In this document: piece after piece, positions 1 through 42,600 of the stretch
Layout: each line of letters opens with the position of its first letter
Position numbering within the stretch: the first letter of the stretch is position 1
NCBI GenBank assembly: GCA_964019135.1
Contig: OZ025261.1
Span: 35,950,820 to 36,014,819 of the forward strand
Origin: Arenicola marina
Lineage: Eukaryota; Annelida; Polychaeta; Arenicolidae
DNA length: 64,000 bases
Direction: 5' to 3'
Program-made: the position numbers and the translations under genes
The notes under the pieces: generated by a model
What the model saw: only the letters and a program-made list of their open reading frames with translations
Databases searched by the model: none
What the model was told of the DNA's origin: nothing

Positions 1-3000
1 AACGGGCGGCTGGTTATTAAGATGGGAACGGGCGGTTGGTTATTAAGATGGGAACGAGCGGCTGGTTATTAAGATGGGAGCGGGCGGCTGGTGATTAAGA
101 TGGGAACGGGCGCCTGGTCATTAAGATGGGAACGGGCGGCTGGTTATTAAGATGGGAACGGGCAGCTAGTCATTAAGATGGGAACGGGCGGCTGGTCATT
201 AAGATGGGAACGGGCGGCTGGTTATCAAGATGGGAACGGGCACCTGGTTATTGAGATGGAAACGGGCACCTGGTTATTAAGATGGGAACAGGCGGCTGGT
301 TATTAAGATGGGAACGGGCGGTTGGTTATTGAGATGGGAACGGGCGGCTGGTTATTAAGATGGGAACTGGCGGCTGGTTATTAAGATGGGAACGGGCGGC
401 TGGTTATTAAGTAGGGAACGGGCGGCTGGTTATTAAGTTGGGAACGGGCGGCCTGGTTATGAAGATAGGAACGGGCGGCTGGTTATTAAGATGGGAACGG
501 GCGGCTGGTTATTAAGATGGGAACGGGCGGCTGGTTATGAAGATGGGAACGGGCGGTTGGTTATTAAGATGGGAACGAGCGGCTGGTTATTAAGATGGGA
601 GCGGGCGGCTGGTTATTAAGATGGGAACCGGCGGCTGGTGATTAAGATGGGAACGGGCGGCTGGTTATTAAGATGGGAACGGGCAGCTAGTCATTAAGAT
701 GGGAACGGGCGGCTGGTTATTAAGATGGGAACGGGCAGCTAGTCATTAAGATGGGAACGGGCGGCTGGTTATTAAGATGGGAACGGGCGGCTGGTTATGA
801 AGATGGGAACGGGCGGTTGGTTATTAAGATGGGAACGAGCGGCTGGTTATTAAGATGGGAGCGGGCGGCTGGTTATTAAGATGGGAACCGGCGGCTGGTG
901 ATTAAGATGGGAACGGGCGGCTGGTTATTAAGATGGGAACGGGCAGCTAGTCATTAAGATGGGAACGGGCGGCTGGTCATTAAGATGGGAACGGGCGGCT
1001 GGTTATCAAGATGGGAACGGGCGGCTGGTCATTAAGATGGAAACAGGCGGCTGGTGATTAAGATGGGAACGGGCGGCTGGTTATTAAGATGTGAACTGGC
1101 GGCTGGTTATTAAAATGGGAACGGGCGGCTGGTTATAAAGATGAGAACGGGCGGCTGGTTATTAAGATGGGAACAAGCGGCTGGTGATTAAGATGGGAAC
1201 GGGCGGCTGGTTATTAAGATGTGAACTGGCGTCTGGTTATTAAGATGGGAACGGGCGGCTGGTTATTAACATGGGAACGGGCGGCTGGTTATTAACATGG
1301 GAACGGGCGGCTGGTGATTAAGATGGGAACGGGCGGCTGGTTATTAAGATGGGAACGGGCGGCTGGTTATTAAGTTGGGAACGGGCAACTGGTTATTAAG
1401 ATGGGAGCGGGCGGCTGGTTATTAAGATGGGAACTGGCGGCTGGTTATTTAGATGGGAGCGGGCGGCTGGTTATTAAGATAGGAACGGGCGGCTGGTTAT
1501 TAAGATGGGAACGGGCGACTGGTTATTAAGTTGGGAACGGGCGGCTGGTTATTAAGATGGGAACGGGCGACTGGTTATTAAGATGGGAGCGGGCGGCTGG
1601 TTATTAAGATGCGAACGGGCGGCTGGCTATTAAGATGGGAACGGGCGCCTAGTTATTAAGATGTGAACTGACGGCTGGTTATTAAGATGGGAACGGGCGG
1701 CTGGTGATTAAGATGGGAACGGGCGGCTGGTTATTAAGATGGGAACGGGCGGCTGGTCATTAAGATGGGAACGGGCGGCTGGTTATTAAGATGGGAACGG
1801 GCGGCTGGTTATTAAGATGTGAACTGGCGTCTGGTTATTAAGATGGGAACGGGCGGCTGGTTATTAACATGGGAACGGGCGGCTGGTTATTAAGATGGGA
1901 ACGGGCGGCTGGTGATTAAGATGGGAACGGGCAGCTGGTTATTAAGATGGGAACGGGCGGCTGGTTATTAAGTTGGGAGCGGGCGGCTGGTTATTAAGAT
2001 GGGAGCGGGCGGCTGGTTATTAAGATGGGAACGGGCGGCTGGTTATTAAGTTGGGAACGGGCGGCTGGTTATTAAGATAGGAACGGGCGGCTGGTTATTA
2101 AGTTGGGAACGGGCGGCTGGTTATTAAGATGGGAACGGGCGACTGGTTATTAAGATGGGAGCGGGCGGCTGGTTATTAAGTTGGGAACGGGCGGCTGGTT
2201 ATTAAGATAGGAACGGGCGGCTGGTTATTAAGTTGGGAACGGGAGGCTGGTTATTAAGATGGGAGCGGGCGGCTGGTTAATAAGATGCGAACGGGCGGCT
2301 GGCTATTAAGATGGGAACGGGCGCCTGGTTATTAAGATGTGAACTGACGGCTGGTTATTAAGATGGGAACGGGCGGCTGGTTATTAAGATGGGAACGGGC
2401 GGCTGGTTATTAAGATGGGAACGGGCTGCTGGCTATTAAGATGGGAACGGGCGGCTGGTTATTAAGATGGGAACGGGCGGCTGGCTATTATTATGGGAGC
2501 GGGCGGCTGGTGATTAAGATGGGAACGGGCGGCTGGTTATTAAAATGGGAACGGGCTGCTGGTTGTTAAGATGGGAACGGGCGGCTGGTGATTAAGATGG
2601 GAACGGGCGGCTGGTTATTAAGATGGGAACGGGCTGCTGGCTGTTAAGATGGGAACGGGCGGCGGGTTATTAAGATGGGAACGGGCGGCTGGTTATTAAG
2701 ATGGGAACGGGCGGCTGGTTATTAAGATGGGAACGGGCGCCTGGTTATTAAGATGGGAGCGGGCGGCTGGTGATTAAGATGGGAACGGGCGGCTGGTTAT
2801 TAAAATGGGAACGGGCGGCTGATTATTAAGATGGGAACGGGCGGCTGGTGATTAAGATGGGAACGGGCGGCTGGTTATTAAGATGGGAACGGGCTGCTGG
2901 CTATTAAGATGGGAACGGGCTGCTGGTTATTAAGATGGGAACGGGCTGCTGGCTATTAAGATGGGAACGGGCGGCTGGTTATTAAGATGGGAACGGGCGG

Positions 3001-4545
3001 CTGGTTATTAACATGGGAACGGGCGGCTGGTTATTAAGATGGGAACGGGCGGCTGGTTATTAACATGGGAACGGGCGGCTGGTTATTAAGATGGGAACGG
3101 GCGGCTGGTTACTAAGATTGGAACGGGCGGCTGGTTATTAAAATGGGAACGGGCGGCTGGCTATTAAGATGGGAGCGGGCGGCTGGTGATTAAGATGGGA
3201 ACGGGCGGCTGGTTATTAAAATGGGAACGGGCTGTTGGTTATTAAGATGGGAACGGGCGGCTGGTTAAGATGGGAACGGGCGGCTGGTTATTAAGACGGG
3301 AACGGGCGCCTGGTTATTAAGATGGGAGCGGGCGGCTGGTTATTAAGATGGGAACGGGCGGCTGGCTATTAAGTTGGGAACGGGCGGCTGGTTATTAAGA
3401 TAGGAACGGGCGGCTGGTTATTAAGTTGGGAACGGGCGGCTGGTTATTAAGATGGGAGCGGGCGGCTGGTTATTAAGATGGGAACGGGCGGCTGGTTATT
3501 AAGATGGGAACGGGCGGCTGGTTATTAAGATGGGAACGGGCGGCTGGTTATTAAGATGGGAGCGGGCGGCTGGTTATTAAAATGGGAGCGGGCGGCTGGT
3601 TATTAAGTTGGGAGCGGGCGGTTGGTTATTAAGTTGGGAACGGGCGGCTGGTTGTGAAGATGGGAACGGGCGGCTGGTGATTAAGATGGAAACGGGCGGC
3701 TGGTTATTAAGATGGGAACGGGCGGCTGGTTATTAAGGTGGGAACGGGCGGCTGGTTATTAAGATGGGAACGGGCGGCTGGTTATTAAGATGGGAGCGGG
3801 CGGCTGGTTATTAAGATGGGAACGGGCGGCTGGTTATTAAGATGGGAACGGGCGGCTGGTTAAGATGGGAACGGGCGGCTGGTTATTAAGACGGGAACGG
3901 GCGCCTGGTTATTAAGATGGGAGCGGGCGGCTGGTTATTAAGATGGGAACGGGCGGCTGGCTATTAAGTTGGGAACGGGCGGCTGGTTATTAAGATAGGA
4001 ACGGGCGGCTGGTTATTAAGTTGGGAACGGGCGGCTGGTTATTAAGATGGGAGCGGGCGGCTGGTTATTAAGATGGGAACGGGCGGCTGGTTATTAAGAT
4101 GGGAACGGGCGGCTGGTTATTAAGATGGGAACGGGCGGCTGGTTATTAAGATGGGAGCGGGCGGCTGGTTATTAAAATGGGAGCGGGCGGCTGGTTATTA
4201 AGTTGGGAGCGGGCGGTTGGTTATTAAGTTGGGAACGGGCGGCTGGTTGTGAAGATGGGAACGGGCGGCTGGTTATTAAGTTGGGAACGGGCGGCTGGTT
4301 ATTAAGATAGGAACGGGCGGCTGGTTATTAAGTTGGGAACGGGCGGCTGGTTATTAAGATGGGAACGGGCGGCTGGTTATTAAGATGGAAACGGGCGGCT
4401 GGTTATTAAGATGGGAACGGGCGGCTGGTTATTAAGGTGGGAACGGGCACCTGGTTATTAAGATGGGAACGGGCGGCTGGTTATTAAGATCGGAACGGGC
4501 GCCTGGTTATTAAGATGGGGACGGGCGGCTGGTTATTAAGATGCG
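1..4545. repeat. 26-bp minisatellite array (about 175 units)
   Basis: Head-to-tail units close to AACGGGCGGCTGGTTATTAA plus GATGGG (26 bp) run from the window edge to about 4545, so the array continues to the left. Variants (GAGCGGGC, CTGGTGATTAAG, GGGCGCCTGG, TAAGTTGGG) recur in the same order, showing higher-order structure. One marked pair is the shortened unit followed by AAGACGGG near 3262 and again near 3860, a shift of 598 bp or 23 units. Another shift of 260 bp (10 units) is seen between about 535 and 795. No gene is supported inside it. Confidence 0.97.
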
Positions 4546-5520
4546 TCAATGTACCACTGACAGGTCCCATGCTATTAGCGCTACCAATTATTATTATCAA
4601 TGAGCGTAATGTTTGATGTATGTGCAGTTTTTAGTGCGCACGTTTTACGTTTCAACGGCATGGTTACCCGCCTGCGTATTACTTTTACGTGAACGGATGT
4701 CTTCTTCCTTGATTACCGAGCCGGCAGAACTCAATCATCTGGCCCCATTCCCTATATAGGCTACGTTGCCTAACTGGCAGTGTCTAACTTGGAGGCTATT
4801 TTTTCACTTCGACCGAATTGACATACAATTCCCAAAACCTTGCTGTTCTGTATTTATTATACTGCCAGACTGTAACAGGCTCGTTTCAAGCGAGGGTTTC
4901 TGTATAATATGCCGCAGCTACACCCACCCCCCGCCTTCACTTTTATGATTTATTTATATCCTAGGATGATTTATATGAGTTATATATTAAAATTCAAATG
5001 GCTGCTTATATTGTCAAATTAAACGATTATCTTCCTTGCCTTTAGTATTTAGTTTATTAAATATTTAATTTTTTTATCCTTGCAGCGATGTGAAATAAAG
5101 ATATTTTTTTTGCATGATTTTATTCTATAATATGCTTACCAAATATGTGCAAATTACGTACATGTAGGTCTCCTAACAGCTTGTTTTGGCTATGTAATAA
5201 CAAATATCACTGGAACATGTAAAAAATATGGTAAAAACTGATAAGAGGGCCTCTAATTGAAAATTTTCCAGCTCTTTAACAAGCATTATTGTTTTCTCAT
5301 TTGTGAGCTTTGTATATAATGTTCTTTGCATGGTGTGAAAATTATAAAAGTTCAGGACAAAACAGTGTATCATACCTTCTTACCTCGAACTCAAAGAGAT
5401 TAGCAATGATATACCACTCGAATCCCCCCAAAATTAACTCCACCTAATTCCTTTTCAATAGTTTGATATACCGTGGTAAATCTGCGAGAATTTTTTCATC
5501 TTGTTTTCATCATGCACGAG
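4546..5520. other. Non-coding gap, nothing recognised
   Basis: Unique, AT-rich sequence between two satellites. The short open frames here (for example 4766-4948) have no recognisable domain or splice context. The last 30 bases form a pyrimidine-rich tract that would serve as the acceptor for the exon starting near 5521. Confidence 0.5.
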
Positions 5521-5759
5521 AAAAGACCAGTGGCCAAACCCAATACCACAACTATCAACCTATTCTGTTAAAGGTGCAATTCCCGGAAGACCCAGTCGCA
5601 AGGCGAACATGAGTGTTGTCTACGTCGACGAGTCGGCCACAGCGGGCCACCAGGGGGAAGGTTCGAAATCACGTGACAGCCCCCCTCTGACGTCACGCTG
5701 GAAGAGAATCAGTCGCGCCGTTAAGAAGCACAAGGTGGCAACAGTGGGCAGGAGTCATG
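5521..5759 (+). CDS. Unrecognised protein, penultimate or first coding exon
   Basis: Exon of a gene I cannot name. A pyrimidine-rich tract ending CATGCACGAG precedes it, and the frame is open from there. An internal ATG at 5609 (MSVVYVDESATAG...) with A at -3 could be the true start. The translated part is polar and then basic (SRWKRISRAVKKHKV near its end), with no signal peptide or membrane helix. It ends CAT-G followed by GTAAGAATAC, a strong 5' splice site that leaves one base (phase 1). The exon at 16385 begins with GT after an acceptor AG and restores a Gly codon in an open frame, so the pairing fits. From the 5609 ATG the two exons give 259 codons including stop. The acceptor position and whether earlier exons exist are uncertain. 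Confidence 0.5.
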
Positions 5760-8700
5760 GTAAGAATACCAGTCACATGGCACTAGGGATTCATGGTAAG
5801 GACTCCAGTCACATGGCACTATGGATTCATGGTAAGGACTCCAGTCACATGGCACTAGTGATCATGGTAAGGACTCCAGTCACATGGCACTAATGATTCA
5901 TGGTAGGGACTCCAGTCACATGGCACTATGGATTCATGGTAAGGACTCCAGTCACATGGCACTAGTGATTCATGGTAAGGACTCCGGTCACATGGCACTA
6001 GTGATTCATGGTAAGGACTCCAGTCACATGTCTAGTGATTCATGGTAAGAATACCAGTCACATGGCTCTAGTGTTTCATGGTAAGGACTCCAGTCACATG
6101 GCACTAATGATTCATGGTAAGGACTCCAGTCACATGGCACTAGTGATTCATGGTAAGGACTCCGGTCACATGGCACTAGTGATTCATGGTAAGGACTCCA
6201 GTCACATGTCTAGTGATTCATGGTAAGAATACCAGTCACATGGCTCTAGTGTTTCATGGTAAGGACTCCAGTCACATGGCACTAATGATTCATGGTAAGG
6301 ACTCCAGTCACATGGCACTAGGGATTCATGCTAAGAATACCAGTCACATGGCACTAGTGATTCATGGTAAGAATACCAATCACATGGCACTAGTGATTCA
6401 TGGTAAGAATACCAGTCACATGTCTCTAGTGTTTCATGGAAAGAACTCCAGTCACATGGCACTAGTGATTCATGGTAAGGACTCCACTCACATGGCACTA
6501 GGGATTCATGGTAAGGACTCCAGTCACATGGCACTAGGGATTCATGGTAAGAATACCAGTCACATGGCACTAGTGATTCATGGAAAGAATACCAGTCACA
6601 TAGCACTAGGGATTCATGGTAAGAATACCAGTCACATGGCTCTAGTGTTTCATGGTAAGGACTCTAGTCACATGGCTCTAGTGTTTCATGGTAAGGACTC
6701 AAGTCACATGGCTCTAGTGTTTCATGGTAAGGACCCTAGTCACATGGCTCTAGTGTTTCACGGTAAGGACTCTAGTCACATGGCTCTAGTGTTTCATGGT
6801 AAGGACTCTAGTCACATGGCACTAGGGATTCATGGTAAGAATACCAGTCACATGGCACTAGTGATTCATGGTAAGGACTCTAGTCACATGGCTCTAGTGT
6901 TTCATGGTAAGGACTCTAGTCACATGGCACTAGGGGTTCATGGTAAGAATACCAGTCACATGGCACTAGGGATTCATGGTAAGAATACCAGTCACATGGC
7001 ACTAATGATTCATGGTAAGAATACCAGTCACATGGCTCTAGTGTTTCATGGTAAGGACTCCAGTCACATGGCACTAGGGATTCATGGTAAGAATACCAGT
7101 CACATGGCCCTAGTGATTCATGGTAAGAATACCAGTCACATGGCACTAGAGATTCATAGTAAGGACTCTAGTCACATGGCACTAATGATTCATGGTAAGA
7201 ATACCAGTCACATGGCACTAATGATTCATGGTAAGAATACCAGTCACATGGCACTAATGATTCATGGTAAGAATACCAGTCACATGGCTTTAGTGTTTCA
7301 TGGTGAAAACTCCAGTCACATGGCACTAGGGATTCATGGTAAGAATACCAGTCACATGGCACTAATGATTCATGGTAAGAATACCAGTCACATGGCTCTA
7401 GTGTTTTATGGTAAGGACTCTAGTCACATGGCACTAGGGGTTCATGGAAAGAATACCAGTCACATGGCACTAGGGATTCATGGTAAGAATACCAGTCACA
7501 TGGCTCTAGTGTTTCACGGTAAGGACTCTAGTCACATGGCTCTAGTGTTTCATGGTAAGGACTCTAGTCACATGGCACTAGGGATTCATGGTAAGAATAC
7601 CAGTCACATGGCACTAGTGATTCATGGTAAGGACTCCGGTCACATGGCACTAGTGATTCATGGTAAGGACTCCAGTCACATGTCTAGTGATTCATGGTAA
7701 GAATACCAGTCACATGGCTCTAGTGTTTCATGGTAAGGACTCCAGTCACATGGCACTAATGATTCATGGTAAGGACTCCAGTCACATGGCACTAGGGATT
7801 CATGCTAAGAATACCAGTCACATGGCACTAGTGATTCATGGTAAGAATACCAATCACATGGCACTAGTGATTCATGGTAAGAATACCAGTCACATGTCTC
7901 TAGTGTTTCATGGAAAGAACTCCAGTCACATGGCACTAGTGATTCATGGTAAGGACTCCACTCACATGGCACTAGGGATTCATGGTAAGGACTCCAGTCA
8001 CATGGCACTAGGGATTCATGGTAAGAATACCAGTCACATGGCACTAGTGATTCATGGAAAGAATACCAGTCACATAGCACTAGGGATTCATGGTAAGAAT
8101 ACCAGTCACATGGCTCTAGTGTTTCATGGTAAGGACTCAAGTCACATGGCTCTAGTGTTTCATGGTAAGGACCCTAGTCACATGGCTCTAGTGTTTCACG
8201 GTAAGGACTCTAGTCACATGGCTCTAGTGTTTCATGGTAAGGACTCTAGTCACATGGCACTAATGATTCATGGTAAGAATACCAGTCACATGGCACTAGT
8301 GATTCATGGTAAGGACTCTAGTCACATGGCTCTAGTGTTTCATGGTAAGGACTCTAGTCACATGGCACTAGGGGTTCATGGTAAGAATACCAGTCACATG
8401 GCACTAGGGATTCATGGTAAGAATACCAGTCACATGGCACTAATGATTCATGGTAAGAATACCAGTCAAATGGCTCTAGTGTTTCATGGTAAGGACTCCA
8501 GTCACATGGCACTAGGGATTCATGGTAAGAATACCAGTCACATGGCCCTAGTGATTCATGGTAAGAATACCCGTCACATGGCACTAGAGATTCATAGTAA
8601 GGACTCTAGTCACATGGCACTAATGATTCATGGTAAGAATACCAGTCACATGGCACTAATGATTCATGGTAAGAATACCAGTCACATGGCACTAATGATT

Positions 8701-11700
8701 CATGGTAAGAATACCAGTCACATGGCTTTAGTGTTTCATGGTGAAAACTCCAGTCACATGGCACTAGGGATTCATGGTAAGAATACCAGTCACATGGCAC
8801 TAATGATTCATGGTAAGAATACCAGTCACATGGCTCTAGTGTTTTATGGTAAGGACTCTAGTCACATGGCACTAGGGGTTCATGGAAAGAATACCAGTCA
8901 CATGGCTCTAGTGTTTCATGGTAAGGACCCTAGTCACATGGCTCTAGTGTTTCACGGTAAGGACTCTAGTCACATGGCTCTAGTGTTTCATGGTAAGGAC
9001 TCTAGTCACATGGCACTAGGGATTCATGGTAAGAATACCAGTCACATGGCACTAGTGATTCATGGTAAGGACTCTAGTCACATGGCTCTAGTGTTTCATG
9101 GTAAGGACTCTAGTCACATGGCACTAGGGGTTCATGGTAAGAATACCAGTCACATGGCACTAGGGATTCATGGTAAGAATACCAGTCACATGGCACTAAT
9201 GATTCATGGTAAGAATACCAGTCACATGGCTCTAGTGTTTCACGGTAAGGACTCTAGTCACATGGCTCTAGTGTTTCATGGTAAGGACTCTAGTCACATG
9301 GCACTAGGGATTCTTGGTAAGAATACCAGTCACATGGCACTAGTGATTCATGGTAAGGACTCTAGTCACATGGCTCTAGTGTTTCATGGTAAGGACTCTA
9401 GTCACATGGCACTAGGGGTTCATGGTAAGAATACCAGTCACATGGCACTAGGGATTCATGGTAAGAAAACCAGTCACATGGCACTAATGATTCTTGGTAA
9501 GAATACCAGTCACATGGCTCTAGTGTTTCATGGTAAGGACTCCAGTCACATGGCACTAGGGATTCATGGTAAGAATACCAGTCACATGGCACTAGTGATT
9601 CATGGTAAGAATACCAGTCACATGGCACTAGGGATTCATAGTAAGGACTCTAGTCACATGGCACTAATGATTCATGGTAAGAATACCAGTCACATGGCAC
9701 TAATTATTCATGGTAAGAATACCAGTCACATGGCACTAGGGATTCATGGTAAGAATACCAGTCACATGGCTCTAGTGTTTCATGGTAAGGACTCCACTCA
9801 CATGGCACTAGGGATTCATGGTAAGAATACCAGTCACATGGCTCTAGTGTTTCATGGTAAGGACTCCAGTCACATGGCAGTAGGGATTCATGGTAAGAAT
9901 ACCAGTCACATGGCACTAGGGATTCATGGTAAGAATACCAGTCACATGGCACTAGGGATTCATGGTAAGGACTCTAGTCACATGGCACTAATGATTCATG
10001 GTACGAATACCAGTCACATGGCACTAATGATTCATGGTAAGAATACCAGTCACATGGCTCTAGTGTTTCATGGTGAAAACTCCAGTCACATGGCACTAGG
10101 GATTCATGGTAAGAATACCAGTCACATGGCACTAGGGATTCATGGTAAGAATACCAGTCACATGGCACTAATGATTCATGGTAAGAATACCAGTCACATG
10201 GCTCTAGTGTTTTATGGTAAGGACTCTAGTCACATGGCACTAGGGGTTCATGGAAAGAATACCAGTCACATGGCACTAGGGATTCATGGTAAGAATACCA
10301 GTCACATGGCTCTAGTGTTTCATGGTAAGGACTCTAGTCACATGGCTCTAGTGTTTCATGGTAAGGACTCTAGTCACATGGCTCTAGTGTTTCATGGTAA
10401 GGACCCTAGTCACATGGCTCTAGTGTTTCACGGTAAGGACTCTAGTCACATGGCTCTAGTGTTTCATGGTAAGGACTCTAGTCACATGGCACTAGGGATT
10501 CATGGTAAGAATACCAGTCACATGGCACTAGTGATTCATGGTAAGGACTCTAGTCACATGGCTCTAGTGTTTCATGGTAAGGACGCTAGTCACATTGCAC
10601 TAGGGGTTCATGGTAAGAATACCAGTCACATGGCACTAGGGATTCATGGTAAGAATACCAGTCACATGGCACTAATGATTCATGGTAAGAATACCAGTCA
10701 CATGGCTCTAGTGTTTCATGGTAAGGACTCAAGTCACATGGCACTAGGGATTCATGGTAAGAATACCAGTCACATGGCCCTAGTGATTCATGGTAAGAAT
10801 ACCAGTCACATGGCACTAGAGATTCATAGTAAGGACTCTAGTCACATGGCACTAATGATTCATGGTAAGAATACCAGTCACATGGCACTAATGATTCATG
10901 GTAAGAATACCAGTCACATGGCACTAATGATTCATGGTAAGAATACCAGTCACATGGCTTTAGTGTTTCATGGTGAAAACTCCAGTCACATGGCACTAGG
11001 GATTCATGGTAAGAATACCAGTCACATGGCACTAATGATTCATGGTAAGAATACCAGTCACATGGCTCTAGTGTTTTATGGTAAGGACTCTAGTCACATG
11101 GCACTAGGGGTTCATGGAAAGAATACCAGTCACATGGCACTAGTGATTCATGGTAAGAATACCAGTCACATGGCTCTAGTGTTTCATGGTAAGGACTCTA
11201 GTCACATGGCTCTAGTGTTTCATGGTAAGGACTCTAGTCACATGGCTCTAGTGTTTCATGGTAAGGACCCTATTCACATGGCTCTAGTGTTTCACGGTAA
11301 GGACTCTAGTCACATGGCTCTAGTGTTTCATGGTAAGGACTCTAGTCACATGGCACTAGGGATTCATGGTAAGAATACCAGTCACATGGCACTAGTGATT
11401 CATGGTAAGGACTCTAGTCACATGGCTCTAGTGTTTCATGGTAAGGACGCTAGTCACATGGCACTAGGGGTTCATGGTAAGAATACCAGTCACATGGCAC
11501 TAGGGATTCATGGTAAGAATACCAGTCACATCGCACTAATGATTCATGGTAAGAATACCAGTCACATGGCTCTAGTGTTTCATGGTAAGGACTCCAGTCA
11601 CATGGCACTAGGGATTCATGGTAAGAATACCAGTCACATGGCCCTAGTGATTCATGGTAAGAATACCAGTCACATGGCACTAGAGATTCATAGTAAGGAC

Positions 11701-14700
11701 TCTAGTCACATGGCACTAATGATTCATGGTAAGAATACCAGTCACATGGCACTAATGATTCATGGTAAGAATACCAGTCACATGGCACTAATGATTCATG
11801 GTAAGAATACCAGTCACATGGCTTTAGTGTTTCATGGTGAAAACTCCAGTCACATGGCACTAGGGATTCATGGTAAGAATACCAGTCACATGGCACTAAT
11901 GATTCATGGTAAGAATGCCAGTCACATGGCTCTAGTGTTTTATGGTAAGGACTCTAGTCACATGGCACTAGGGGTTCATGGAAAGAATACCAGTCACATG
12001 GCTCTAGTGTTTCATGGTAAGGACCCTAGTCACATGGCTCTAGTGTTTCACGGTAAGGACTCTAGTCACATGGCTCTAGTGTTTCATGGTAAGGACTCTA
12101 GTCACATGGCACTAGGGATTCATGGTAAGAATACCAGTCACATGGCACTAGTGATTCATGGTAAGGACTCTAGTCACATGGCTCTAGTGTTTCATGGTAA
12201 GGACTCTAGTCACATGGCACTAGGGGTTCATGGTAAGAATACCAGTCACATGGCACTAGGGATTCATGGTAAGAATACCAGTCACATGGCACTAATGATT
12301 CATGGTAAGAATACCAGTCACATGGCTCTAGTGTTTCACGGTAAGGACTCTAGTCACATGGCTCTAGTGTTTCATGGTAAGGACTCTAGTCACATGGCAC
12401 TAGGGATTCATGGTAAGAATACCAGTCACATGGCACTAGTGATTCATGGTAAGGACTCTAGTCACATGGCTCTAGTGTTTCATGGTAAGGACTCTAGTCA
12501 CATGGCACTAGGGGTTCATGGTAAGAATACCAGTCACATGGCACTAGGGATTCATGGTAAGAATACCAGTCACATGGGACTAATGATTCTTGGTAAGAAT
12601 ACCAGTCACATGGCTCTAGTGTTTCATGGTAAGGACTCCAGTCACATGGCACTAGGGATTCATAGTAAGAATACCAGTCACATGGCACTAGTGATTCATG
12701 GTAAGAATACCAGTCACATGGAACTAGGGATTCATAGTAAGGACTCTAGTCACATGGCACTAATGATTCATGGTAAGAATACCAGTCACATGGCACTAAT
12801 TATTCATGGTAAGAATACCAGTCACATGGCACTAGGGATTCATGGTAAGAATACCAGTCACATGGCTCTAGTGTTTCATGGTATGGACTCCACTCACATG
12901 GCACTAGGGATTCATGGTAAGAATACCAGTCACATGGCTCTAGTGTTTCATGGTAAGGACTCCAGTCACATGGCAGTAGGGATTCATGGTAAGAATACCA
13001 GTCACATGGCACTAGGGATTCATGGTAAGAATACCAGTCACATGGCACTAGGGATTCATGGTAAGGACTCTAGTCACATGGCACTAATGATTCATGGTAC
13101 GAATACCAGTCACATGGCACTAATGATTCATGGTAAGAATACCAGTCACATGGCTCTAGTGTTTCATGGTGAAAACTCCAGTCACATGGCACTAGGGATT
13201 CATGGTAAGAATACCAGTCACATGGCACTAGGGATTCATGGTAAGAATACCAGTCACATGGCACTAATGATTCATGGTAAGAATACCAGTCACATGGCTC
13301 TAGTGTTTTATGGTAAGGACTCTAGTCACATGGCACTAGGGGTTCATGGAAAGAATACCAGTCACATGGCACTAGGGATTCATGATAAGAATACCAGTCA
13401 CATGGCTCTAGTGTTTCATGGTAAGGACTCTAGTCACATGGCTCTAGTGTTTCATGGTAAGGACTCTAGTCACATGGCTCTAGTGTTTCATGGTAAGGAC
13501 CCTAGTCACATGGCTCTAGTGTTTCACGGTAAGGACTCTAGTCACATGGCTCTAGTGTTTCATGGTAAGGACTCTAGTCACATGGCACTAGGGATTCATG
13601 GTAAGAATACCAGTCACATGGCACTAGTGATTCATGGTAAGGACTCTAGTCACATGGCTCTAGTGTTTCATGGTAAGGACGCTAGTCACATGGCACTAGG
13701 GGTTCATGGTAAGAATACCAGTCACATGGCACTAGGGAATCATGGTAAGAATACCAGTCACATGGCACTAATGATTCATGGTAAGAATACCAGTCACATG
13801 GCTCTAGTGTTTCATGGTAAGGACTCTAGTCACATGGCACTAGGGGTTCATGGAAAGAATACCAGTCACATGGCGCTAGGGATTCATGGTACGAATACCA
13901 GTCACATGGCTCTAGTGTTTCGTGGTAAGGACTCTAGTCACATGGCTCTAGTGTTTCATGGTAAGGACTCTAGTCACATGGCACTAGGGGTTCATGGTAA
14001 GAATACCAGTCACATGGCACTAGTGATTCTTGGTAAGGACTCTAGTCACATGGCTCTAGTGTTTCATGGTAAGGACTCTAGTCACATGGCACTAGGGTTT
14101 CATGGTAAGAATACCAGTCACATGGCACTAGTGATTCATGGTAAGAATACCAGTCACATGGCTCTAGTGTTTCATGGTAAGGACTCTAGTCACATGGCAC
14201 TAGGGGTTCATGGTAAGAATACCAGTCACATGGCTCTAGTGTTTCATGGTAAGGACTCCACTCACATGGCACTAGGGATTCATAGTAAGGACTCTAGTCA
14301 CATGGCACTAATGATTCATGGTAAGAATACCAGTCACATGGCACTAATTATTCATGGTAAGAATACCAGTCACATGGCACTAGGGATTCATGGTAAGAAT
14401 ACCAGTCACATGGCTCTAGTGTTTCATGGTAAGGACTCCACTCACATGGCACTAGGGATTCATGGTAAGAATACCAGTCACATGGCTCTAGTGTTTCATG
14501 GTAAGGACTCCAGTCACATGGCAGTAGGGATTCATGGTAAGAATACCAGTCACATGGCACTAGGGATTCATGGTAAGAATACCAGTCACATGGCACTAGG
14601 GATTCATGGTAAGGACTCTAGTCACATGGCACTAATGATTCATGGTACGAATACCAGTCACATGGCACTAATGATTCATGGTAAGAATACCAGTCACATG

Positions 14701-15989
14701 GCTCTAGTGTTTCATGGTGAAAACTCCAGTCACATGGCACTAGGGATTCATGGTAAGAATACCAGTCACATGGCACTAGGGATTCATGGTAAGAATACCA
14801 GTCACATGGCACTAATGATTCATGGTAAGAATACCAGTCACATGGCTCTAGTGTTTTATGGTAAGGACTCTAGTCACATGGCACTAGGGGTTCATGGAAA
14901 GAATACCAGTCACATGGCACTAGGGATTCATGATAAGAATACCAGTCACATGGCTCTAGTGTTTCATGGTAAGGACTCTAGTCACATGGCTCTAGTGTTT
15001 CATGGTAAGGACTCTAGTCACATGGCTCTAGTGTTTCATGGTAAGGACCCTAGTCACATGGCTCTAGTGTTTCACGGTAAGGACTCTAGTCACATGGCTC
15101 TAGTGTTTCATGGTAAGGACTCTAGTCACATGGCACTCGGGATTCATGGTAAGAATACCAGTCACATGGCACTAGTGATTCATGGTAAGGACTCTAGTCA
15201 CATGGCTCTAGTGTTTCATGGTAAGGACGCTAGTCACATGGCACTAGGGGTTCATGGTAAGAATACCAGTCACATGGCACTAGGGATTCATGGTAAGAAT
15301 ACCAGTCACATGGCACTAATGATTCATGGTAAGAATACCAGTCACATGGCTCTAGTGTTTCATGGTAAGGACTCTAGTCACATGGCACTAGGGGTTCATG
15401 GAAAGAATACCAGTCACATGGCGCTAGGGATTCATGGTACGAATACCAGTCACATGGCTCTAGTGTTTCATGGTAAGGACTCTAGTCACATGGCTCTAGT
15501 GTTTCATGGTAAGGACTCTAGTCACATGGCACTATGGGTTCATGGTAAGAATACCAGTCACATGGCACTAGTGATTCATGGTAAGGACTCTAGTCACATG
15601 GCTCTAGTGTTTCATGGTAAGGACTCTAGTCACATGGCACTAGGGTTTCATGGTAAGAATACCAGTCACATGGCACTAGTGATTCATGGTAAGAATACCA
15701 GTCACATGGCTCTAGTGTTTCATGGTAAGGACTCTAGTCACATGGCACTAGGGGTTCATGGTAAGAATACCAGTCACATGGCTCTAGTGTTTCATGGTAA
15801 GGACTCTAGTCACATGGCACTAATGATTCATGGTAAGAATACCAGTCACATGGCTCTAGTGTTTTATGGTAAGGACTCTAGTCACATGGCACTAGGGGTT
15901 CATGGTAAGAATACCAGTCACATGGCTCTAGTGTTTCATGGTAAGAACTCTAGTCACATGGCACTAATGATTCATGGTAAGGACTCTTA
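5760..15989. repeat. 36-bp satellite, about 284 units, inside an intron
   Basis: Units of 36 bp built on CATGGTAAGAATACCAGTCA followed by CATGGCACTAGGGATT, with a second class reading GGTAAGGACTCTAGTCACAT. The first unit starts exactly at the 5' splice site of the upstream exon and most units repeat that junction (CATG/GTAAG). Because 36 is twelve codons and the unit lacks stops, it gives a spurious 2778-codon frame on plus and many 64-111 codon frames on minus. Frame-changing indels near 5861, and 34-bp variant units near 6030, 6206 and 7680, break the frame from the exon. Higher-order copies are offset by 864, 1548 and 3096 bp (24, 43 and 86 units) and by 1474 bp (41 units less 2 bp). Confidence 0.95.
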
Positions 15990-16384
15990 TCTCTGAAGAT
16001 TGGGGCAGTGTATCCTGACATGTTAAATTTGATAAAGGGATGCAATAAAACTATTGAAATGAAATGGGAGCATTGTTGGCGACACGTACGTTGCAAGCCA
16101 AACGTAGAATTTGTTGGTGAGTTTAGTAAACTGTGCGTTGATTGGGAGGGATGTATCGTAAGGTACAGATGTTGAGGGAAGTACCGACCATTGATCGAGG
16201 AAAGTTGTTTTATCGTTCTTTAACCCCATCACGCCCCTTTAGTTACTAGTGTAATCGTCCTGTAATTAAGACTTTCGGAACGGTTCGGTTTGAAAAGGAA
16301 AAGATATTTATCTATAGACACTTAAATGCACACATTTTAATGTATATATATATATATATATATATAAAGTGTTTTGACTCGTAG
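15990..16384 (+). other. Intron remainder with (TA)n tract
   Basis: Unique sequence after the 36-bp array. A pure TA dinucleotide tract lies at about 16342-16367, just upstream of the acceptor GTTTTGACTCGTAG that precedes the exon at 16385. No coding feature is seen. Confidence 0.6.
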
Positions 16385-17010
16385 GTTATGACGTCAGACC
16401 GTCTGTGCGTCGCACCGATAGCACGCAGAGGCGCGACGGGCTGACGCCGCTGACAAACCTCTACAAACCCTCCCCCAACACCGTCACGTTCGCCCCTGAC
16501 GGCTACGACAGCGACGTGACTGGCAGCGAAACTCATATCGACGTCACTGATGGCGCCACTTATGACGTCACGCCCGTTGCGAATGGACTTCCGGCCCAGG
16601 CGTATCCTTCACGGATTGAAGACAATAATAACCTTATTAGGATCGGCAGTGCATCGGGCGATAATACAATTGCTGTGGAGGAGTTAAGGCCCGGCCACGT
16701 GGAGGCCACGGACCTTAAAATGACGGGAAACTCCGCAACTAATCCTCATCTGCAAGTCACCTCACGTGTTCATAGTCAAAGCGCGATACATACTAGGGTC
16801 GACCATAGTGACGTCACACCAAATAGAACATCGAGCAGTGGTGGGAAGCTGGCGGTGGCAGGTTCGCCGGAGATGGCACCGTCAGTGGGCGACGTCTCAT
16901 GTACCCATGTCCAACGTAAAGACGTGGTCGCCATTGAGACAGTCACCGTCAATGGCATTGGGAATCCAGGATTTTGTCTGAGTGAAAATATGACGGATAT
17001 CGAAGCGTGA
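16385..17010 (+). CDS. Unrecognised protein, terminal exon
   Basis: Open from an acceptor (CTCGTAG) to a TGA at 17008-17010, 626 bp. The phase matches the donor at 5759, giving Gly-Tyr-Asp-Val at the junction. The ~208 residues are hydrophilic and Ser/Thr/Asp-rich, with recurring DVT motifs (SDVTG, IDVTD, YDVTP, SDVTP), and end NMTDIEA. There is no membrane segment, cysteine pattern or catalytic motif. It looks like a disordered C-terminal tail. G+C is clearly higher than in the flanks, which supports coding. I do not recognise the family. A candidate AATAAA lies at 17380. Confidence 0.55.
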
Positions 17011-36493: not shown

Positions 36494-36613
36494 GCCAATG
36501 AGAGGAGGAATTGCAACGGTTTTGTAAGCCTCGTTTTCATGTTTGTTGATATCCAGCACGTGATGGCTCTCGGTTGATTTCGTCTTTCTCACAGTTGCTG
36601 ATTTCGAGACAGC

Positions 36614-39600
36614 ATGACGCGAGGGTGTCCGACCGGTCTACTCCAAGTGTTGCCGTATATTTTACTGCTTTACTCAGGCATTCTGTTAGTGTCTGTTGGT
36701 GCTGAAACTAGAGATGATTACATGGAAAGACGACATGAATTCATACACGCAGAAAACTCTGAACGAACGGGGGGACAACTTTTATTGTCCCCTGCCGAAC
36801 AAACGGTCAACAAACAGCTGATGAGCCAGAAAGCCATTGAAATGAAAGCAGCAAGACGAAACAGCTCTACCTTTCCGCCTGCGATGCACTTTTTCCATGC
36901 TAAACGTTACATCGATCAGAGTCCCATCTTCAAGTTCATCCAAAAAATGCCCAAAGGTCAGCAAAATAGTTCATTGCCAGGCAAACTATCACTTTATATT
37001 TGGTTTGCCAGCTTGTCATATTATTGTTCTTACTTGCATCTTGATCAGAAGTAAAGAGCATCAATAATAGACACAACACATCACATACGTCACATAGATT
37101 TCACTACAAACACTACTCTTCCTTTTCAAGCTTTTGGCTGCAAGGGAAGCCAAGATTAAGGGGGGGCATTAATGGGAGTTAGAGGGGGAGGGGGCCTCAA
37201 GGGCAGTCAAGATTAAGGGGTGGGGATGAATTAAGGGGAGAGGGGGATTCAAGGGAAGTCAAGATTAAGGGGGAGGGGGCCTCAAGGGAAGTCAAGATTA
37301 AGCGGGGCGTTAAGGGAAAGTGGGGAGGGTGACTCAAGGGAAGTCAAGATTAGGGGGGAGCCTCAAGGGGGGGGGGGGGCATTAAGTAGAGAGGGAGGGG
37401 GCCTCAAGGGCAATCTAGATTAAGAAGGTGGGTTAAGGGGAACATGGTCCCAAGGGAAGTCAAGATTAGGGGGCCAGGGGCGGGTAGTAAGGGGCAATGG
37501 AGAGTAAGTAGGGAGGGGCCTCAAGGGAAGTGGAGAGTAAGAAAGAAGGGGTCCTCAATGGAAGTTAAGATTAAGAGAGGCATGAAGGGAAATGGAGGGC
37601 CTCAAGAGAAGTCAAGAGTCTGGGGGGCATTAAGGGGAAGTGGAGAGTAAGGGGGAAGGGGGCCTCAAGGGAAGTCAAGATTAAGGGGGGGCGGGGTGGG
37701 TTAAGGGGCAGTGGAGAGTAAATGGGGAGGTGGCCTCAGGAGAAGTCAAGAGTAAGGGTGAGGGGAATTAAGGGGAAGTGGAGATTAAGTTGGAATGGGG
37801 CTTCAACGGAAGTGAAGATTAAGCCTATAATTCATGGAAAGTGGAGAGTAAGGGGGAAGGTGGCCTTAAATAGAAGACAAGATTAAGGGGGGCATTAAAG
37901 GGAAGTTGAGGGTAAAGGGGAGGCCTCCTCAATGAAAGTCAAGATTAAGGGGGGGGGGGTTAGGGGAAGTCAACAGTCTGGGGGGCATTAAGGGAAAGTA
38001 AGAGTAAGGGGGAAGGGGGCCCGAAGGGAAGTCACAATTAAGGGGAAGTGAAGAATAAGGGGGAAGGGGGACTCAAGGGAAGTCAAGATTAAGGGGGGGG
38101 CATTAAGGGGAAGTGGAGGAGGAGGGGGTCTCAAGGGCAGTCAAGATTAAGGGGGGACCTCAAGGGAAGTCAAGATTAAGGGGGGGATTAAGGCGAATTG
38201 GGGAGTAAGGGGGGAGGGGGACTCAAGGGAAGTCAAGATTAGGGGAGGTTACATTAAGGGGAAGTGGAGGAGGAGGGGGGGTCAAGAGCAGTCAACATTA
38301 AAGGGGGGGAGAGCTCAAGAGAAGTCTAGATTAAGGGGTGGGGGGGGGGATTAGGACAAATTGGGGAGTAAGGGGGGAGAGGGTCCGAAGGAAAGTCAAG
38401 AGTAAGGTGTGTGTGGGTTAAGGGTAAGGGGGCCTCAAGTGAAGTGAAGAGTAAGGGTGAGGGGAACTGAAGAGTAAGGGAGGAGGGGTCCTCAAGGGAA
38501 GTCAAGAGTAAGGGTGAGGGGAACTGAAGAGTAAGGGGGCCTCAAGTGAAGTGAAGAGTAAGGGTGAGGGGAACCGAAGAGTAAGGGAGGAGGGGTCCTC
38601 AAGTGAAGTCAAGAGTAAGGGTGAGGGGAGCCGAAGAGTAAGGGAGGAGGGGTCCTCAAGGGAAGTCAAGAGTAAGGGGTGTGTGGGTTAAGGGGAAGGG
38701 GGCCTCAAGTGAAGTGAAGAGTAAGGGTGAGGGGAACCGAAGAGTAAGGGAGGAGGGGTCCTCAAGGGAAGTCAAGAGTAAGGGGTGTGTGGGTTAAGGG
38801 GAAGGGGGCCTCAAGTGAAGTGAAGAGTAAGGGTGAGGGGAACCGAAGAGTAAGGGAGGAGGGGTCCTCAAGGGAAGTCAAGAGTAAGGGTGAGGGGAAC
38901 TGAAGAGTAAGGGGGCCTCAAGTGAAGTCAAGAGTAAGGGTGAGGGGAACCGAAGAGTAAGGGAAGAGGGGTCCTCAAGGGAAGTCAAGAGTAAGGGTGA
39001 GGGGAACTGAAGAGTAAGGGGGCCTCAAGTGAAGTCAAGAGTAAGGGTGAGGGGAACCGAAGAGTAAGGGAGGAGGGGGCCTCAAGGGAAGTCAAGAGTA
39101 AGGGTGAGGGGAACCGAAGAGTAAGGGAGGAGGGGTCCTCAAGGGAAGTCAAGAGTAAGGGTGAGGGGAACCGAAGAGTAAGGGAGGAGGGGGCCTCAAG
39201 GGAAGTCATGAGTAAGGGTGAGGGGAACCGAAGAGTAAGGGAGAAGGGGTCCTCAAGGGAAGTCAAGAGTAAGGGTGAGGGGAACTGAAGAGTAAGGGGG
39301 CCTCAAGTGAAGTCAAGAGTAAGGGTGAGGGGAACCGAAGAGTAAGGGAGGAGGGGGCCTCAAGGGAAGTCAAGAGTAAGGGTGAGGGGAACCGAAGAGT
39401 AAGGGGGGAGGGGTCCTCAAGGGAAGTCAAGAGTAAGGGTGAGGGGAACTGAAGAGTAAGGGGGGAGGGGTCCTCAAGGGAAGTCAAGAGTAAGGGTGAG
39501 GGGAACCGAAGAGTAAGGGAGGAGGGGGCCTCAAGGGAAGTCAAGAGTAAGGGTGAGGGGAACTGAAGAGTAAGGGGGCCTCAAGTGAAGTCAAGAGTAA

Positions 39601-42600
39601 GGGTGAGGGGAACCGAAGAGTAAGGGAGGAGGGGTCCTCAAGGGAAGTCAAGAGTAAGGGTGAGGGGAACCGAAGAGTAAGGGAGGAGGGGGCCTCAAGG
39701 GAAGTCAAGAGTAAGGGTGAGGGGAACCGAAGAGTAAGGGAGGAGGGGTCCTCAAGGGAAGTCAAGAGTAAGGGTGAGGGGAGCCGAAGAGTAAGGGGGC
39801 CTCAAGTGAAGTCAAGAGTAAGGGTGAGGGGAACCGAAGAGTAAGGGAGGAGGGGGCCTCAAGGGAAGTCAAGAGTAAGGGTGAGGAGAGCCGAAGAGTA
39901 AGGGGGCCTCAAGTGAAGTCAAGAGTAAGGGTGAGGGGAACCGAAGAGTAAGGGAGGAGGGGGCCTCAAGGGAAGTCAAGAGTAAGGGTGAGGGGAACCG
40001 AAGAGTAAGGGAGGAGGGGGCCTCAAGGGAAGTCAAGAGTAAGGGTGAGGGGAACCGAAGAGTAAGGGAGGAGGGGGCCTCAAGGGAAGTCAAGAGTAAG
40101 GGTGAGGGGAACCGAAGAGTAAGGGAGGAGGGGGCCTCAAGGGAAGTCAAGAGTAAGGGTGAGGGGAACTGAAGAGTAAGGGGGCCTCAAGTGAAGTCAA
40201 GAGTAAGGGTGAGGGGAACCGAAGAGTAAGGGAGGAGGGGGCCTCAAGGGAAGTCAAGAGTAAGGGTGAGGGGAGCCGAAGAGTAAGGGGGTCTCAAGTG
40301 AAGTCAAGAGTAAGGGTGAGGGGAACCGAAGAGTAAGGGAGGAGGGGGCCTCAAGGGAAGTCAAGAGTAAGGGTGAGGGGAACTGAAGAGTAAGGGAGGA
40401 GGGGGCCTCAAGGGAAGTCAAGAGTAAGGGTGAGGGGAACCGAAGAGTAAGGGAGGAGGGGGCCTCAAGGGAAGTCAAGAGTAAGGGTGAGGGGAACCGA
40501 AGAGTAAGGGAGGAGGGGTCCTCAAGGGAAGTCAAGAGTAAGGGTGAGGGGAACCGAAGAGTAAGGGAGGAGGGGGCCTCAAGGGAAGTCAAGAGTAAGG
40601 GTGAGGGGAACTGAAGAGTAAGGGAGGAGGGGGCCTCAAGGGAAGTCAAGAGTAAGGGTGAGGGGAACTGAAGAGTAAGGGAGGAGGGGGCCTCAAGGGA
40701 AGTCAAGAGTAAGGGTGAGGGGAACCGAAGAGTAAGGGGTGAGGGGTCCTCAAGGGAAGTCAAGAGTAAGGGTGAGGGGAACCGAAGAGTAAGGGAGGAG
40801 GGGGCCTCAAGGGAAGTCAAGAGTAAGGGTGAGGGGAACTGAAGAGTAAGGGGGCCTCAAGTGAAGTCAAGAGTAAGGGTGAGGGGAACCGAAGAGTAAG
40901 GGAGGAGGGGTCCTCAAGGGAAGTCAAGAGTAAGGGCGAGGGGAACCGAAGAGTAAGGGAGGAGGGGGCCTCAAGGGAAGTCAAGAGTAAGGGTGAGGGG
41001 AACCGAAGAGTAAGGGAGGAGGGGGCCTCAAGGGAAGTCAAGAGTAAGGGTGAGGGGAACTGAAGAGTAAGGGAGGAGGGGGCCTCAAGGGAAGTCAAGA
41101 GTAAGGGTGAGGGGAACCGAAGAGTAAGGGAGGAGGGGGCCTCAAGGGAAGTCAAGAGTAAGGGTCAGGGGAACCGAAGAGTAAGGGAGGAGGGGGCCTC
41201 AAGGGAAGTCAAGAGTAAGGGTGAGGGGAACTGAAGAGTAAGGGGGCCTCAAGTGAAGTCAAGAGTAAGGGTGAGGGGAACCGAAGAGTAAGGGAGGAGG
41301 GGTCCTCAAGGGAAGTCAAGAGTAAGGGTGAGGGGAACCGAAGAGTAAGGGAGGAGGGGGCCTCAAGGGAAGTCAAGAGTAAGGGTGAGGGGAACCGAAG
41401 AGTAAGGGAGGAGGGGGCCTCAAGGGAAGTCAAGAGTAAGGGTGAGGGGAACCGAAGAGTAAGGGAGGAGGGGGCCTCAAGGGAAGTCAAGAGTAAGGGT
41501 GAGGGGAACCGAAGAGTAAGGGAGGAGGGGGCCTCAAGTGAAGTGAAGAGTAAGGGTGAGGGGAACCGAAGAGTAAGGGAGGAGGGGGCCTCAAGGGAAG
41601 TCAAGAGTAAGGGTGAGGGGAACTGAAGAGTAAGGGGGCCTCAAGTGAAGTGAAGAGTAAGGGTGAGGGGAACTGAAGAGTAAGGGAGGAGGGGGCCTCA
41701 AGGGAAGTCAAGAGTAAGGGTGAGGGGAACCGAAGAGTAAGGGAGGAGGGGGCCTCAAGGGAAGTCAAGAGTAAGGGTGAGGGGAACCGAAGAGTAAGGG
41801 AGGAGGGGGCCTCAAGGGAAGTCAAGAGTAAGGGTGAGGGGAACCGAAGAGTAAGGGAGGAGGGGGTCTCAAGGGAAGTCAAGAGTAAGGGTGAGGGGAA
41901 CCGAAGAGTAAGGGAGGAGGGGGCCTCAAGGGAAGTCAAGAGTAAAGGTGAGGGGAACCGAAGAGTAAGGGAGGAGGGGGCCTCAAGGGAAGTCAAGAGT
42001 AAGGGTGAGGGGAACTGAAGAGTAAGGGGGCCTCAAGTGAAGTCAAGAGTAAGGGTGAGGGGAACCGAAGAGTAAGGGAGGAGGGGGCCTCAAGTGAAGT
42101 CAAGAGTAAGGGTGAGGGGAACCGAAGAGTAAGGGAGGAGGGGTCCTCAAGGGAAGTCAAGAGTAAGGGTGAGGGGAACCGAAGAGTAAGGGAGGAGGGG
42201 GCCTCAAGGGAAGTCAAGAGTAAGGGTGAGGGGAACTGAAGAGTAAGGGAGGAGGGGGCCTCAAGGGAAGTCAAGAGTAAGGGTGAGGGGAACTGAAGAG
42301 TAAGGGAGGAGGGGTCCTCAAGGGAAGTCAAGAGTAAGGGTGAGGGGAACTGAAGAGTAAGGGAGGAGGGGTCCTCAAGGGAAGTTAATATTAAGAGGGG
42401 CATGAAGGGAAAGTGGAGAGTAAGGGCGAGGGGCCTCAATGGAAGTCAAGATTAAGGGGGCGGAGCAGAGGAAGTCAAGAGTCTGGGGGGGTGGGGGGCA
42501 TTATGGGACAATGGAGAGTGTTAACATTGTTAGAAATTCTTTTTATTTGTGAAATCAAGTGTGCGCTGCAGGCTTCACGTAATCCCCCCCCCCCCCCCCA

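What the first reader, a model, noticed from the sequence alone, without database searches (positions are those of the whole stretch)
5760..15989. Array of nearly 300 tandem 5' splice-site-like motifs starting at a real exon's donor
The upstream exon ends CATG/GTAAGAAT. The 36-bp satellite begins at that base and most units repeat CATG/GTAAG(A/G), with the +1 to +5 match to U1 snRNA. The array appears to have grown from the exon-intron junction itself, so the pre-mRNA would offer hundreds of decoy U1 sites. This could titrate U1, suppress premature polyadenylation along a long intron, or create variable donors that add 12 residues per unit. I know of no described satellite of this type.
Basis: partly seen in the sequence, partly recalled or inferred. 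Interest (0 to 1): 0.78.

Follow-up and report, generated by a model that had tools for sequence, protein, structure and literature searches.

The report
Splice-donor satellite in annelid potassium-channel intron
In a worm's potassium-channel gene, the point where an exon meets its intron seems to have been copied in tandem nearly 300 times, leaving a string of spare splice signals that looks like a by-product of repeat expansion rather than a built device.

Summary
The array is real: 284 units of 36 bp at 5755-15981 on +; 240 of 284 carry a 5' splice site scoring at least as well as the upstream exon's own donor. The neighbouring open frames fit, in phase, the tail of a Kv3/Shaw potassium-channel gene: exon 5574-5759 (not 5521), last exon 16385-17010. 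The array fills about 96% of that intron and overlaps the exon's last 5 bp. A genome search found no second copy. Two further arrays start at donors: the same gene's T1 exon, and a lipocalin-like gene met in a 50-kb sample, whose units copy 30 bp of exon plus 15 bp of intron. Arrays bearing CAGGTAAGT look about five-fold over-represented on a small, partly listed sample. Best explanation: minisatellites born from exon-intron junctions, donors carried as passengers. No special conservation of donor columns or coding was seen. Only donors 1-3 of 284 give an in-frame full tail. U1 titration is unlikely; protection from premature polyadenylation and real donor use need RNA data that were not available.

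The parts
5574..5759 (+). Predicted penultimate (cassette-like) coding exon of the Kv3/Shaw gene, 186 bp, phase 1 at both ends; ends CATG|GTAAGAAT
   Evidence: Upstream Kv3 exon (L013:6000-7122) ends in phase 1 at GAAG|GTGGGT; acceptor ...ctattctgttaaag|GT at 5573/5574 is in phase (my reading); joined reading frame open. No Pfam, PDB or paralogue match (searches used 5534-5758, one search used 5480-5893). 5526 is another phase-compatible start; 5521 is not.
5755..15981 (+). 36-bp minisatellite array, 284 units plus a partial one; most units carry ATG|GTAAG(A/G)
   Evidence: higher-order offsets 1548 and 3096 bp; no second copy found in the genome apart from a weak match to a 34-bp array on C20
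5760..16384 (+). Predicted last intron of the gene, 10,625 bp; about 10,222 bp of it is the array, about 403 bp is not
   Evidence: Coordinates; splice positions predicted, no RNA
5832..5866 (+). 35-bp spacing between donors 3 and 4 that breaks the reading frame
   Evidence: donors 1, 2, 3 give +0, +12, +24 residues; the other 281 stop early
16044..16049 (+). AATAAA, the only AATAAA/ATTAAA in the predicted intron, 63 bp past the array
16385..17010 (+). Predicted last coding exon (acceptor actcgtag|GT, phase 1, stop at 17008-17010)
   Evidence: Open frame of 207 codons (16387-17007); open in the same frame in 2 of 3000 dinucleotide shuffles; codon score +19.6 bits, a weak measure; no Pfam, no meaningful PDB and no paralogue match
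1..4543 (+). End of a different, 26-bp array (about 15.8 kb, from L013:8735 through L014) in the preceding intron of the same predicted gene

Best explanation
A locus-specific intronic minisatellite that arose by tandem duplication across the 5' exon-intron junction of the penultimate exon of a Kv3-type channel gene, then grew by slippage or unequal exchange, including block duplications of about 43 units. The units inherited the last few exon bases and the donor. Growth was tolerated because the first donor still ends the exon correctly and everything beyond is removed as intron. The extra donors are passengers; an occasional use of donors 2 or 3 would add 12 or 24 residues to the channel's tail. 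Shown: array, unit content, boundary, gene context by homology and phase, lack of special conservation at donor columns. Inferred: direction of growth, that donor 1 is the one used, neutrality.
For: Array homology starts 5 bp inside the predicted exon. Gene context: BTB/T1 exon and S1-S6 exon on the same strand upstream, best PDB match Kv3.1 (KCNC1) at 1e-79, phases compatible through the predicted junctions. No second copy of the repeat found. Same architecture twice more: lipocalin-like gene in L055, exon 1 (117 bp...QYLGQWYQ|GTAAGT) followed by 45-bp units, six of which match the last 30 exon bases at 24-28 of 30 and carry CAG|GTAAGT (gene supported by Lipocalin_10, 5.8e-7, in a downstream frame); Kv3 T1 exon donor L012:9659/9660, where TRF starts a 29-bp array 11 bp downstream and by eye the first unit begins at the donor. 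CAGGTAAGT triplets at minisatellite spacing: 5 arrays in the first 46.1 Mb of C1, both strands, against 1.05 expected from the same-dinucleotide control, P 0.004. Neutral pattern in the 278 full-length units: of 47 distinct variants 35 non-synonymous, 12 synonymous, 0 stop, against 36.0, 10.6 and 0.39 expected; 1.5 variants per donor column against 1.27 elsewhere.
Against: No outgroup, so the order of events (junction first, array later) is not shown. Only 5 bp of exon are in the Kv3 unit, unlike the 30 bp in the lipocalin case. Mean divergence at the six donor columns (2.7%) is below the mean of the other columns (10.9%), although 8 of 36 six-column stretches are lower still. A second donor 9-mer, AAGGTAAGT, gave 17 arrays against 9 for the control (p 0.084), and real donors make these 9-mers commoner in any case, which I could not correct for. 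In the 43 arrays held, units with GTRAG are about as frequent as chance (7 observed, 5.0 expected).
Confidence: 0.62

Rival explanations
1. Reverse order or coincidence: a minisatellite arose in the intron on its own and the exon's donor was later supplied by, or happens to abut, its first unit.
For: In the 43 non-duplicate arrays held, units containing GTRAG are no commoner than chance (7 against 5.0); arrays are abundant in what I hold (68,364 of 269,131 bases, not a random sample), so some will lie beside donors. Without the array the intron is only about 400 bp, so adjacency by chance is a matter of a few per cent (my estimate).
Against: Five exon bases are shared at the boundary; two other donors have arrays starting at them; in the lipocalin case 30 bases of coding sequence are in the full units, which cannot come from the intron.
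Confidence: 0.2
2. The array is kept because its U1 sites work: they suppress premature polyadenylation, buffer donor choice, or tune exon inclusion.
For: 241 strong sites in transcript orientation, predicted U1 pairing -8.0 to -8.7 kcal/mol for the three commonest strong forms; one AATAAA 63 bp beyond the array.
Against: Donor columns show no special conservation; one AATAAA in the intron is unremarkable; U1 titration is implausible by number (recalled U1 abundance). No RNA data.
Confidence: 0.08
3. The array is coding: a long exon encoding a 12-residue repeat (HGKNTSHMALVI-like), open for 2779 codons.
For: Open frame 7657-15996 with the same peptide unit as the exon's read-through.
Against: Openness is nearly automatic: few one-step changes of the unit make a stop (0.39 of 47 variants expected); codon score -770.7 bits over 2779 codons (a weak measure, see Tried and rejected); frame broken between exon and array body by a 35-bp and three 34-bp spacings; synonymous and non-synonymous variants as expected without selection.
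Confidence: 0.03
4. The flanking exons are not real and the array is intergenic.
For: No family, structure or paralogue match for either exon; the upstream frame, tested as 5534-5758, is open in 334 of 3000 shuffles, so not unusual by itself, and its codon score is -6.3 bits (+7.2 from the ATG at 5609).
Against: Last exon open in only 2 of 3000 shuffles; phases agree with the Kv3 exons upstream.
Confidence: 0.07

Closest known systems
Intronic minisatellites / VNTRs that affect splicing (e.g. TERT VNTR6-1, 38-bp unit in intron 6, PMC11830802, start of abstract seen in the listing; ABCA7 VNTR, recalled)
   Same: Tandem units of tens of bp in an intron
   Different: I saw nothing in those listings about units carrying the neighbouring exon's own donor or an array starting at the junction
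Tandem dual-specific splice sites (DSS) in polyubiquitin UBC and VCX3A (PMC10809524; abstract and sections 7 and 9 read)
   Same: Tandem repeat whose units carry splice sites; the authors argue that expansion of such repeats is less deleterious because the extra part can be spliced out
   Different: There the units are coding and AGGT serves as donor or acceptor; here the repeat is intronic, donor-only (ATG|GT), with hundreds of units
Earthworm metallothionein genes with minisatellite arrays in intron 1 (PMC12783039; passages seen)
   Same: Annelid gene with a large minisatellite region in an intron
   Different: The passages seen do not describe donor-bearing units or a start at the junction
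Intron gain by tandem genomic duplication (potato RdRp gene, PMC4974935; start of abstract seen in the listing)
   Same: Tandem duplication tied to splice sites
   Different: There an intron is gained; here an existing intron is enlarged

Membership tests
Minisatellite | Tandem head-to-tail units of roughly 10-100 bp | tested here: met
   36-bp unit, 284 copies
Minisatellite / VNTR | Copy number varies between individuals | not testable with these tools
   One assembly only
Classical satellite DNA | Same repeat at many loci or in heterochromatic blocks | tested here: not met
   One weak hit elsewhere, to a different 34-bp repeat; the search skips very common words, so this is a limited test
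Tandem dual-specific splice sites (UBC type) | AGGT in each unit, usable as donor and acceptor | tested here: not met
   Consensus unit reads ATG|GTAAG, so no AGGT at the donor. The lipocalin units (CCAG|GTAAGT) do contain AGGT
U1 telescripting element | U1-binding sites protect against a downstream poly(A) site | tested here: inconclusive
   Sites and one AATAAA are present; protection needs RNA experiments
Kv3/Shaw potassium channel (host gene) | T1/BTB domain plus six-segment channel closest to KCNC | tested here: met
   BTB_2 6.3e-29, Ion_trans 3.5e-46; KCNC1 271.6 bits against 221.7 for the best Kv1. Only solved structures were compared
Kv3/Shaw potassium channel (host gene) | The two exons beside the array belong to this gene | tested here: inconclusive
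   Phases and strand agree; no homology for the tail exons, no RNA

The most novel reading that the evidence does not exclude
In this annelid, exon-intron junctions are recurrent birthplaces of minisatellites: a genome-wide class of junction-born arrays in which an exon's own 5' splice site is multiplied from a few to hundreds of times, enlarging introns without destroying splicing and producing natural ladders of competing donors.
Probability: 0.3. Interest if true: 0.75.

Novelty: new variant of a known kind. Interest (0 to 1): 0.5.

Why it matters
If right, it shows a simple route by which introns grow: duplication across a donor is tolerated because the first copy still ends the exon, so the array can expand. 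It also offers a natural experiment on an old question, how the spliceosome chooses among many near-identical 5' splice sites: 241 sites scoring as well as the predicted authentic one, in order, in one intron. Long-read RNA from this animal would answer it directly.

Tried and rejected
Coding repeat: rejected on variant classes, frame breaks and codon score. Genome-wide satellite: rejected, no second copy found. U1 titration: rejected on numbers (recalled). Sea-urchin origin: a Bindin search found nothing but its controls were silent too; the mitochondrial contig has cox1-cox2-cox3-nad6-cob-atp6-nad5-nad4-nad1-nad3-nad2, the standard annelid order as I recall it, gene names given by me from the translations. 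Species not determined. Rfam: no match in the window.

The first codon model was faulty because minus-strand loci were read on the wrong strand; it was repeated. There, leave-one-out scores of 16 kinase exons ran from -69.1 to +162.1 bits, 5 of 16 below zero, so the score discriminates weakly and a small positive value means little.

Boundary test: of 74 array 5' boundaries (43 arrays, both strands; boundaries near locus ends, duplicate loci and probable ciliate loci dropped) 4 have a donor of 8.4 bits or more within 15 bp; background 1.1%, about 0.8 expected. One of the four is the given array, one (57-bp array) has donor-like words in its own units, one (L055 43-bp array) is at no exon known to me, one is the Kv3 T1 exon; so this is weak. 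The lipocalin array is not among the four because its units reach 30 bp into the exon. Of 8 donors that I placed by homology or resemblance (Kv3 three; ADA2-like three, of which only exon 1 passes its Pfam cut-off; lipocalin-like two) 3 have an array starting at them, but this set was not chosen blindly.

Pattern counts (matches, forward and reverse; then the tool's reversed-pattern control): CAGGTAAGT triplets 568 and 922, control 437 and 156; CAAGGTAGT 65 and 200, control 124 and 173; AAGGTAAGT 114 and 214, control 33 and 188. Match counts are dominated by array length. Array counts come from the first 100 listed places and rough contig lengths: CAGGTAAGT 5 arrays on C1 to 46.1 Mb (one of them possibly two); CAAGGTAGT 9 on C1 to C8:38.8 Mb; AAGGTAAGT 17 on C1-C8 plus 1 on C9; reversed motif TGAATGGAC 1 on all of C1. 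My notes and first took the listing as one strand only; one search shows that strands are listed together, so the expectation is 1.05, not 0.52, and P is 0.004, not 0.0002; against the reversed motif P is 0.03.

Papers: ten searches ran (two searches were rejected for wording). In the rows listed I saw no satellite grown from an exon's donor; the library is open-access only and most hits were seen as listings, so absence there is weak. Passages of PMC3045353, PMC3039753 and PMC8460440 and the abstract of PMC11782384 were seen and not used.

Full report
What is there. TRF reports a 36-bp array at 5755-15981 with 284.3 copies. I split it into 284 units plus a partial last one; 279 of 283 spacings are 36 bp, three 34 and one 35. 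Of the 284 units, 240 score at least 8.83 bits as 5' splice sites, the score of the exon's own donor; 229 read ATG|GTAAG(A/G) exactly. With the partial unit, 241 such sites lie on the + strand, 6 on the other; shuffles give 4.75 on average. The array has block structure: exact 200-mers recur most often at offsets 3096 and 1548 bp. A genome search with the first 246 bases found only a weak match to a different 34-bp array on C20.

Host. The window lies in an 867-Mb genome at C14:35950820-36014819. The mitochondrial contig has the gene order that I recall as standard for annelids and reads in table 5. Species was not determined.

The gene. Upstream on the same strand are an exon with a BTB/T1 domain (L012, donor AAG|GTTAGT after 9659, phase 0) and an exon with the six-segment channel (L013:6000-7122, donor GAAG|GTGGGT, phase 1; positions read by me); Pfam 6.3e-29 and 3.5e-46, closest solved structure Kv3.1 at 1e-79. 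A phase-1 donor needs a partner with two leftover bases. From 5574 the exon is 186 bp, 62 codons, phase 1 at both ends, and joins in phase to 16385, giving an open tail to the stop at 17008-17010. The last exon's frame (16387-17007) is open in 2 of 3000 dinucleotide shuffles of itself; the upstream frame, tested as 5534-5758, in 334 of 3000. Neither has a Pfam, useful PDB or paralogue match, as could be expected of a fast-evolving tail but leaving the assignment unproved. The predicted intron is 10,625 bp, about 96% array.

Did it grow from the junction? The homology reaches 5 bp into the exon. That alone is thin. Two other cases carry more weight. In a 50-kb sample fetched as a control, L055 holds a lipocalin-like gene on the minus strand: exon 1 (6647-6531) ends ...QYLGQWYQ|GTAAGT, and the array that follows repeats the last 30 exon bases (24-28 of 30 identical in six units) plus 15 intron bases. 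Here the unit contains coding sequence, so the junction is the source. A downstream frame matches Lipocalin_10 at 5.8e-7; exon 1 itself has no lipocalin match (only DUF6705, 0.0027, under its cut-off) and is assigned by its place and a recalled motif; the second frame has none, nor does exon 1 in the PDB. And at the Kv3 gene's own T1 exon TRF starts a 29-bp array 11 bp past the donor; by eye its first unit begins at the donor. Among 8 donors that I placed by homology or resemblance, 3 have such an array; the set was not chosen blindly.

Genome-wide. Triplets of CAGGTAAGT at minisatellite spacing: 5 arrays in the first 46.1 Mb of C1, both strands. A control with the same dinucleotides, CAAGGTAGT, has 9 arrays listed over C1 to C8:38.8 Mb, so 1.05 would be expected (P 0.004); the reversed motif has 1 array in all of C1 (P 0.03). 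A second donor form, AAGGTAAGT, has 17 on C1-C8 against 9 (p 0.084). True donors make such words commoner in unique sequence too, which I could not correct for. In the 43 non-duplicate arrays held, GTRAG-bearing units are 7 against 5.0 expected. The class is suggested, not established.

Function. Distinct variants among the 278 units of exactly 36 bp: 35 non-synonymous, 12 synonymous, 0 stop, of 47; expected 36.0, 10.6, 0.39. The long open frame is therefore no evidence of coding. Donor columns have 1.5 variants each against 1.27 elsewhere; their mean divergence is low (2.7% against 10.9%) but eight of the 36 six-column stretches are lower. Donors 1-3 give the full tail with +0, +12, +24 residues; the other 281, past a 35-bp spacing, stop at residue 107-118 of the joined piece instead of 271. 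One AATAAA lies at 16044. None of this shows use of the extra donors.

Known relatives. Polyubiquitin's tandem dual-specific sites (PMC10809524; abstract and sections 7 and 9 read) are the nearest in idea; there the units are coding and AGGT acts both ways. Intronic minisatellites are known, also in an earthworm (PMC12783039; passages seen). In the rows of ten searches of an open-access library I saw no satellite grown from an exon's donor.

Verdict. Observation confirmed; junction origin likely; functional proposals mostly unsupported. A new variant of a known kind.

Noticed in passing
L055:6248-6647 (minus strand), G000:C10:25.0 Mb: Lipocalin-like gene whose first intron starts with a 45-bp array; full units carry the last 30 bp of exon 1 and CAG|GTAAGT.
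   Followed up: yes
L012:9660-9981: 29-bp array starting at the donor of the Kv3 T1 exon; units read ..GGCAAAG|GTCAGTC.
   Followed up: partly
L013:8735 through L014 to window 4543: 26-bp array of about 15.8 kb in the preceding intron of the same predicted gene; a 49-bp array of at least 18 kb (L019, L011) lies further upstream.
   Followed up: no
window 36602-51780: ADA2/ADGF-like adenosine deaminase gene (exon 1 passes its Pfam cut-off, later exons are weak); its first intron holds purine-rich 57/63-bp arrays (37183-42458). The part 38427-42458 has 209 sense-strand sites of 5 bits or more, 1 as strong as the Kv3 exon's donor.
   Followed up: partly
G000 small contigs C443, C465, C504, C330, C652, C609, C497, C684, C232: Kinase matches with in-frame TAG/TAA but no TGA, which looks like contamination by an organism with a ciliate-type code.
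   Followed up: no
G000:C3, 14-57 Mb: Dozens of similar kinase-like matches, mostly open frames of about 280-320 codons: a large local expansion.
   Followed up: no
G000:C5:5.402-5.437 Mb: Five kinase gene copies spaced about 8.5 kb apart.
   Followed up: no
G000:C2:42.756-42.764 Mb: Long array rich in TGAATGGAC units about 20 bp apart, met as a control hit.
   Followed up: no
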